Shown one piece after another: positions 1-31,255 of a stretch of DNA of 64,000 nt. Both the position numbers and the translations under genes were made by a program. Numbering within the stretch: the first letter of the stretch is position 1; each line of letters starts with the position of its first letter. The stretch lies in assembly GCF_000621205.1 (NCBI RefSeq), contig NZ_JHYY01000025.1:1-64000 (forward strand), given 5' to 3'. The notes under the pieces were generated by a model. That model saw nothing but the letters and a program-made list of their open reading frames with translations. It ran no database searches and was not told where the DNA came from. The stretch is from Halotalea alkalilenta DSM 17697. Its GTDB lineage: Bacteria; Pseudomonadota; Gammaproteobacteria; Pseudomonadales; Halomonadaceae.

Positions 1-155
1 CGGCGCCGCTCGGGACGAACGGGTTGGGGTCGGCACCCCGTTCGTGTCCTTCGATGCGCTTCGCTTACTCAGGATGCTCGGATAGCCGGTGAGGAACGAG
101 CCGAGTCGAACCACGGCCTCACCACCACCGCTCGGGGCGAACGGGTTTACTGATC
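1..155 (-). repeat. Partial copy of the dispersed CCCGTTCG repeat family
   Basis: Read on the minus strand, this segment contains the same blocks as the tandem repeat field at 29.9-30.5 kb. These are CCCGTTCG-CCCCGAGCGG, then GTGGTTCGACTCGGCTCG, then GAAGGACACGAACGG, then a second CCCGTTCGTCCCGAGCGG. It starts about 20 bp past the stop codon of the gamma-glutamyltransferase gene, in that gene's transcript sense. It runs off the window edge, so its full extent is unknown. No open frame with coding character is visible. Confidence 0.75.
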
Positions 156-29884: not shown

Positions 29885-30540
29885 TGGTTCGACTCAAGAT
29901 GTTTCCGAGCGTCCTGAGCGAGCCGAAGGACACGAACGGCCCAACGAGCCCGTTCGTCCCGAGCGGCGCCATACGCGCCAAGGTCGAGTTCCAGCTCGGC
30001 AACTGGGGGCGCCAGTCGAGGGATCGTGCGGCGGCGCTAAGGCTGTGGTTCGACTCGGCTCGTTCCTCGCCGGCTCACCACGAGCGGATGTGGGGGATGC
30101 CGGGCCTTCGCGCCAATTTCCAACCCGTTCGTCCCGAGCGGCGCCATACGCGCCAAGGTCGAGTTCCAGCTCGGCAATGGGGGCGCCAGTCGAGGGATCG
30201 AGCGGCGGCGATGAGGCTGTGGTTCGACTCGGCTCGTTCCTCGCCGGCTCACCACAAGCGGATGTGGGGGATGCCGGGCCTTCGCGCCAATTCCCAACCC
30301 GTTCGTCCCAAGCGGCGCCGATACGCGCCAAGGTCGAGTTCCAGCTCGGCAACTGGGGACGCCAGTCGAGGGATCGTGCGGCGGCACTAAGGCCGTGGTT
30401 CGACTGCCCTCGCGCCCCGGGCACTGACCTTGAACGGTTGGGAATGCAGGGCCTTCGCGCCAACTCCCTACCCGTTCGTCCCGAGAGGAGCGAAGCGACG
30501 TCGAGGGATCGGGCGGCTCGAGCGGCCCTTCCTCGGCCGC
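29885..30540 (+). repeat. 173-175-bp tandem repeat field (three copies plus flanking partials)
   Basis: Three near-identical units begin at CCCGTTCGTCCC (29949, 30124, 30298), with a fourth partial start at 30471. Units share GTCGAGTTCCAGCTCGGCAA, CGCCAGTCGAGGGATCG, GTGGTTCGACT and GGCCTTCGCGCCAA. Units 1 and 2 are most alike, and the second half of unit 3 diverges. The flank at 29904-29938 carries the GTCCTGAG...GAAGGACACGAACGG block also found at the left edge of the window. Frames through the field carry no recognisable domain. The field lies directly behind the DUF481 gene, in its sense orientation, and fills the 693-bp gap to the next gene. Confidence 0.9.
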
Positions 30541-30556: not shown

Positions 30557-31255
30557 CTAGTCCGCCCACCAGGCGTTGAGTTCGTCCAGCACCTCAGCGT
30601 CGATGCCATGGCCGAGCGACGGGTGAAGGCTCCACTGGGTCGTCGCGCCCTGCCGCTCGAGCCAGCGCGCGGTGCGCTCGCCGTGCTGCGGCGGTACCCT
30701 CGCATCCGCATCGCCATGGATCACCAGCACCTTGGCGCCGTCGAGCTCGACGCGGCGAGTGTCGTCGACCAGGAAGCCCGAGAGCAGCGCAGCTCCGTCG
30801 AAGCGCTCGGGCGCTTCGATCAGCACCTCGGCGGCCATCGCCGCGCCCTGGCTGAAGCCGAGCAGGTAGAGCCGCGAAGGAGCGAGCCCCTGCTCTGCCA
30901 GCGCCTCGTCGATGGTCGCGAGCACCGCTTCGCGGCCCTCGGCGACGTCCTGCTCGAGCCCAGGACCGAAACCCTCGACCACGGTGCCTTCGAACCAGCG
31001 ATAACGCTGCGCGGAAAGCTCGAACGGCGCCCGCACGGCGAGCATCCGCCATCCCTCGGGGAGATGTTCGGCCAGCGGCAGCAGGTCACGCTCGTTGGTA
31101 CCGAGGCCATGCAGGGCGACCACCAGCGGCGCGTCCGCGCGCCCCTCTGCCGGCGCCAGGCGATAGGCCAGGCCGGTCTGCGCCCATGCGCTGAAAGCGA
31201 GCGGCAAGAGGAGAATCAGTAGCATGGCGGCGAAGCGAGGATAGCGGCGATACAT
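30557..31255 (-). CDS. Secreted alpha/beta hydrolase (carboxylesterase/phospholipase family)
   Basis: This 232-residue serine hydrolase has an N-terminal signal peptide (about 1-25, ending FSAWA). The catalytic triad is complete: S135 in GFSQG, D184 in HGDADARVP and H216 in LGHGI. The oxyanion segment ALHGLGTNERD is typical of the acyl-protein thioesterase/YpfH-like carboxylesterase group. Export implies a periplasmic or extracellular esterase; the natural ester is unknown. Confidence 0.88.
   Translation of the reverse strand: MYRRYPRFAAMLLILLLPLAFSAWAQTGLAYRLAPAEGRADAPLVVALHGLGTNERDLLPLAEHLPEGWRMLAVRAPFELSAQRYRWFEGTVVEGFGPGLEQDVAEGREAVLATIDEALAEQGLAPSRLYLLGFSQGAAMAAEVLIEAPERFDGAALLSGFLVDDTRRVELDGAKVLVIHGDADARVPPQHGERTARWLERQGATTQWSLHPSLGHGIDAEVLDELNAWWAD

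What the first reader, a model, noticed from the sequence alone, without database searches (positions are those of the whole stretch)
29885..30540. Three-copy 173-175-bp tandem repeat field behind the DUF481 gene
Units starting at 29949, 30124 and 30298 are near-identical, with a fourth partial start at 30471. They contain several short self-complementary blocks (CGTTCG, GTCGAG...CTCGG, GGCGCC) but no credible ORF. The spacing is nearly constant and the last half of unit 3 has diverged. This suggests local amplification of a dispersed unit, not a simple REP pair.
Basis: seen in the sequence. Interest (0 to 1): 0.6.

Follow-up and report, generated by a model that had tools for sequence, protein, structure and literature searches.

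The report
Genus-specific repeat family, IS110 landing site
The three tandem blocks belong to a family of about 80 copies per genome of a palindrome-rich DNA repeat, found so far only in this bacterial genus, which sits between genes, multiplies locally in head-to-tail arrays and is used as a landing site by an apparently RNA-guided jumping gene (IS110 family).

Summary
Window 29949-30485 is a 3.1-copy, 173-175-bp tandem array between a DUF481 gene and a convergent esterase gene. It is not a local oddity: the ~107-bp core was found 79 times at 32 sites in this genome and 80 times at 30 sites in the only other held species of the genus, with only three short weak matches in 273 other genomes of the family. 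All 77 close neighbour pairs are head-to-tail. Sites lie between genes, often convergent ones. Copies resemble array mates (91%) more than copies elsewhere (82%). Most sites are shared by both species, but unit number and linker type differ, and one site is cleanly empty in the sister species. The outer stem is 98% paired, with two compensatory pairs. Best reading: a RAYT-less, REP/BIME-like mosaic repeat that expands by local amplification and inter-site copying. An IS110-family element inserts, in fixed orientation, into the repeat's terminal module (18 of 20 copies in the sister species, including the orthologue of this array). Its leader carries a bridge-RNA-like guide (GTGGTGAG) matching that module; across 12 distinct guides the guide follows each element's own flank. 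Mobility of the repeat itself and any RNA function remain unproven.

The parts
29886..29939 (+). Upstream flanking module of the mosaic: GGTTCGACTC...GAGCGTCCTGAGCGAGCCGAAGGACACGAACGG
   Evidence: Read; the related module CCTGAGYGAGCGAAGCGAGYCGAAGG occurs in both genomes of the genus and in none of the other 248 genomes searched
29949..30123 (+). Unit 1 (175 bp): core 29949-30056 plus 67-bp linker 30057-30123
   Evidence: the linker is 100% identical to a linker at G000:C23 (L046)
30124..30297 (+). Unit 2 (174 bp): core 30124-30230 plus linker 30231-30297
   Evidence: 97% identical to unit 1; linker 97% identical to L046
30298..30470 (+). Unit 3 (173 bp): core 30298-30405 plus a different linker 30406-30470
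   Evidence: this linker is 95% identical over 65 bp to the orthologous flank in G001
30471..30517 (+). Short form of the element: outer palindrome CCCGTTCGTCCCGAG...GTCGAGGGATCGGGCGG without most of the inner part
   Evidence: Read; BLAST matches of its two arms to the units
30074..30087 (+). Unoccupied candidate IS110 target in the terminal module of unit 1 (CTCACCACGAGCGG)
   Evidence: Same sequence as the flank (CCGCTCGTGGTGAG on the other strand) of an IS110 copy of this genome, L126
28982..29863 (+). Upstream neighbour: DUF481 gene (PF04338)
30557..31255 (-). Downstream convergent neighbour: alpha/beta hydrolase (esterase) gene (PF02230)
1..145 (-). Another mosaic copy of the family, cut off by the contig start

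Best explanation
The array is one site of a genus-restricted, non-coding, palindrome-based mosaic repeat family that works like REP/BIME elements. Anatomy (shown): a conserved ~107-bp core with an outer stem, an inner region that some copies lack, and exchangeable linkers, many ending in a second module (...CTCACCACGAACGG). Turnover (shown by comparison of two species): most sites are inherited, arrays differ in unit number and type and are homogenised locally, and linker blocks are shared between distant sites. Inferred: arrays change by unequal recombination or slippage and by gene conversion; new sites arise by an unknown enzyme, since no RAYT-type Y1 transposase is found in either genome; the repeats persist as largely neutral or selfish DNA behind genes. 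Use by a second element (insertion pattern shown, mechanism inferred): an IS110-family element inserts at the terminal module in one orientation, and its leader appears to encode a bridge RNA whose left target guide (GTGGTGAG) matches the repeat, so that the repeats act as abundant, harmless landing sites.
For: Copy number and sites; restriction to the genus; all 77 neighbour pairs head-to-tail; within-site identity 91% against 82% between sites and nearest-neighbour pattern; shared sites with different arrays; clean empty site L048/L225 and sites with short modules only; 100% identical linker at a non-orthologous site; outer-stem pairing and compensatory pairs; intergenic and convergent position; no Y1 transposase. 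IS110: family, 20 copies, target and orientation, guide-like words in the leader, guide follows flank in 12 distinct guides, 0 of 20000 shuffles as good, same guide in the own genome.
Against: No movement was observed; with two species, gain cannot be told from loss at the empty site, and identical linkers may reflect gene conversion alone. Most sites are shared, so recent dispersal is limited. The convergent bias rests on a small baseline from one 64-kb window. Predicted genes are from a simple codon-use script. The bridge RNA is not shown to be transcribed and its right guide was not identified.
Confidence: 0.75

Rival explanations
1. The repeat is mainly a functional RNA element in the 3' ends of mRNAs (stabiliser, attenuator or terminator between convergent genes), kept by selection and homogenised by recombination.
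For: Position behind genes and often between convergent genes; a conserved outer stem with two compensatory pairs; consensus folds somewhat better than shuffles, z -2.1.
Against: No terminator-like site and no Rfam match; unit number varies freely between orthologous sites and one site is simply empty in the sister species; both orientations relative to the upstream gene occur; a 160-nt piece of unit 1 folds no better than shuffles.
Confidence: 0.12
2. The repeat is a non-autonomous transposon (MITE-like, or a by-product of the IS110 element) that spreads by a transposase acting in trans.
For: Dispersed copies, presence/absence of a whole 478-bp block between species, and IS110 copies inside the repeats.
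Against: No target duplication longer than 1 bp and no matching ends at the clean empty site; the IS110 ends differ from the repeat ends and the IS uses the repeat only as target; no Y1 transposase.
Confidence: 0.1
3. A local duplication of a unique intergenic sequence with no wider meaning.
For: The units of one array are very alike.
Against: About 80 copies at about 30 sites in each of two genomes, with a conserved stem.
Confidence: 0.01

Closest known systems
REP / BIME elements, including the GTAG- and CGTC-tagged super-families (PMC2817692, PMC3733652)
   Same: Intergenic, palindromic, dozens to hundreds of copies, predominantly behind genes, clustered in mosaics, genus- or species-specific; CGTC repeats also lack a dedicated transposase.
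   Different: The repeated core is ~107 bp rather than a 20-40-bp palindrome, has neither the GTAG nor the CGTC architecture as defined, and its arrays are strictly head-to-tail rather than alternating; no RAYT.
REP-targeting IS110/IS1111 elements (ISPpu9, ISPpu10, IS621 and others; PMC1525189, PMC11208160, PMC11187229)
   Same: DEDD transposase, insertion into a host repeat in fixed orientation, long left non-coding end with target- and donor-matching words.
   Different: Different host repeat and different guide; the core dinucleotide appears to be AG; transcription of the RNA not shown.
MITEs
   Same: About 100-200 bp, non-coding, able to fold, intergenic.
   Different: No terminal inverted repeats of a resident transposon recognised and no target-site duplication at the one clean empty site.

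Membership tests
REP (GTAG super-family) | Palindrome of 20-40 bp with an unpaired GTAG (or GTGG) tag at one end | tested here: not met
   Core is ~107 bp and begins CCCGTTCGTCCCGAG; no unpaired GTAG tag in the consensus
REP (GTAG super-family) | Associated RAYT (Y1 transposase, PF01797) in the genome | tested here: not met
   None in G000 or G001; E. coli control and many relatives ring
REP in the broad sense | High-copy extragenic palindromic repeat, mostly behind genes | tested here: met
   About 80 copies per genome, intergenic at all sites but one, 15 of 28 classified sites convergent; outer stem 98% paired
CGTC-tagged REP | CGTC tag, 8-9-bp stem beginning with A-T pairs, 4-5-nt loop, CCA-like tail | tested here: not met
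   CGTC is followed by CCGAG, the stem encloses a long inner region, and no CCA tail is seen
BIME | Mosaic of repeat modules with units in alternating orientation | tested here: not met
   Mosaic of modules yes, but 77 of 77 core neighbour pairs are in the same orientation
MITE | Terminal inverted repeats and target-site duplication at empty sites | tested here: inconclusive
   One clean empty site without duplication over 1 bp; other sites not clean
IS110-family element (the inserted element) | DEDD_Tnp_IS110 and Transposase_20 domains | tested here: met
   PF01548 63 bits and PF02371 42.7 bits, both over cut-off
IS110 group bridge RNA (in the inserted element) | Left non-coding end longer than the right, with target and donor guides | tested here: inconclusive
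   Left end 244 nt, right 88 nt; left target guide supported by guide-flank agreement across relatives; right guide and the RNA itself not shown

The most novel reading that the evidence does not exclude
A further kind of REP-like element, larger and strictly head-to-tail, that disperses without any Y1 transposase by an unknown enzyme, and that co-evolves with a bridge-RNA IS110 element programmed to use it as its landing site.
Probability: 0.2. Interest if true: 0.65.

Novelty: new variant of a known kind. Interest (0 to 1): 0.45.

Why it matters
It adds an apparently undescribed, genus-limited repeat family without the transposase usually held responsible for REP spread, and shows by comparison of two species how arrays turn over. 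It also gives a natural case in which the target guide of an IS110 bridge RNA can be read from sequence and matched to a host repeat, which makes guide-target evolution directly testable. For assembly it explains contig breaks: several contigs, including the one holding the window, end in this repeat or in the IS.

Tried and rejected
Rfam at gathering scores and at E up to 1: no match. Protein-coding reading: rejected on codon use. RAYT-mobilised REP: no Y1 transposase in either genome. Literature search with words of the repeat itself: four papers, judged unrelated from title and abstract; papers naming both REP and Halomonas: none on such repeats by title and abstract. Exact 23-mer in genome contigs: nothing, the own genome possibly being left out. 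Plasmids: no match. Viral contigs: one exact 18-mer, not followed. A first script for the IS junctions failed because of locus orientation and was redone. Replichore strand bias was only looked at by eye on G001 coordinates; none was evident.

Full report
What was checked. The array is real: TRF gives 29949-30485, period 174, 3.1 copies, 89% matches. Units are 175, 174 and 173 bp with a fourth start at 30471. It lies between a DUF481 gene and a convergent esterase gene, and its ORFs are not coding-like.

A genome-wide family. A search with unit 1 gives 114 matching pieces in the own genome and 139 in the only other held species of the genus. An iterated profile of the core over the fetched sites gives 79 hits at 32 fetched loci and 80 hits at 30. 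These are lower bounds: only fetched regions were profiled, and a divergent array exists near G001:3.14 Mb (L139). In 273 other genomes of the family only three short weak matches appear, E 2e-4 to 8e-4. A second module of the mosaic is found only in these two of 250 genomes.

Anatomy. The core (~107 bp) begins CCCGTTCGTCCCGAGCGGCG, has a variable middle, continues CGCCAGTCGAGGGATCGAGCGGCGGCG and ends GTGGTTCGACT. The outer stem pairs columns 8-22 with 62-78. It is 98.2% paired in 38 sequences, with compensatory C-G to U-A changes at two pairs, seen in the variants GGCGTTCC...GGGAACGCC and GGCGTCCC...GGGGACGCC. Slid controls are 25-53% paired and no shuffle reaches the observed covariation score; the number of covarying pairs itself (2) is not beyond the shuffles. 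Some copies lack most of the inner part, as at 30471 in the window and at L071. Linkers are exchangeable modules, many ending CTCACCACGAACGG.

Turnover. Neighbours within 400 bp are head-to-tail in 77 of 77 pairs; full neighbours are 146-287 bp apart. Identity averages 91% within and 82% between loci. Of 121 copies, 69 have their best match in the same array, against about 2% at random. Most G000 sites have an occupied orthologue in G001 but with different numbers and types of units. The window's site has 3 units of 173-175 bp here, and 4 units spaced 210 bp plus an IS110 copy in G001. One G000 site is cleanly empty in G001 (478-bp difference, no duplication over 1 bp), and others hold only short modules or unrelated sequence there. 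The linker of unit 1 is 100% identical over 67 bp to a linker at a different site of the same genome, while the linker of unit 3 is the one inherited with the site, 95% to G001. This points to copying between sites; gene conversion and transposition cannot be told apart.

Position. Nearly all sites lie between predicted genes. In G000, 15 of 28 classified sites are convergent, against 4 of 31 gaps in the window, Fisher p 0.002. The baseline is small and the gene calls are a simple codon-use prediction.

No REP transposase. PF01797 finds nothing in G000 or G001, while the E. coli control and 34 of 58 searched genomes match.

The IS110 connection. Near-identical 1.7-1.9-kb blocks in G001 contain a 1661-bp element with a 442-aa IS110-family transposase. 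There are 20 full copies in G001 and fragments at contig ends in G000. Eighteen of 20 left flanks are the repeat's terminal module (CCGTTCGTGGTGAG and near variants). The other two are a similar sequence (GTTCATGGTGAG) in another context and the end of another IS copy. Where a repeat core lies next to it, the transposase runs antiparallel to the repeat. The left non-coding end (244 nt, right end 88 nt) carries GTGGTGAG, and TGGAAAG as at the element's own end. Relatives (58-76% identical for those used) were aligned at their leaders: the column of GTGGTGAG reads each element's own left flank, 59 of 72 positions over 12 distinct guides, shuffled mean 23.9, maximum 45. One relative (L195) whose flank did not align was left out after inspection. 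This is what a bridge RNA left target guide should do, and a left end longer than the right is the IS110-group arrangement (PMC11208160). A G000 copy has the same guide and the flank CCGCTCGTGGTGAG, a sequence also present, unoccupied, in the window at 30074-30087. That REPs are targets of such elements is known (PMC1525189); this pairing of repeat and element was not found described.

Limits. No expression data, no transposition assay, two species only. RNA function is possible but not supported beyond position and a modest stem. The statement that the family is undescribed rests on a few searches of an open-access library.

Noticed in passing
G001, 20 loci (L117-L141); G000 contig ends of C10, C13, C17, C23, C28: IS110-family element whose leader guide (GTGGTGAG) matches the repeat's terminal module; guides of relatives follow their own flanks.
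   Followed up: partly
L159 and L162 (Bradyrhizobium): Relatives of the IS have the flank ATCCTGAG and the guide GTCCTGAG; the same CCTGAG word occurs in modules of this repeat family. Whether they also use a host repeat was not tested.
   Followed up: no
L139, G001 near 3.14 Mb: A divergent tandem array (...CTCGACTGGCGTCCCCCGG...GACGCCGCTCGGGACGAACGG) not picked up by the unit-1 search, so the family is larger than counted.
   Followed up: no
G001 1.75-2.80 Mb: No core copies in about a quarter of the chromosome; cause unknown.
   Followed up: no
window 1-145; ends of G000 contigs C7, C10, C21, C23; C29/C19: Contigs start or end in or near the repeats; the flanks of G001 array L102 lie near the ends of two different G000 contigs.
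   Followed up: partly
L239 (viral contig IMGVR_UViG_3300012971_000502): One exact 18-mer match to the core start, possibly chance.
   Followed up: no
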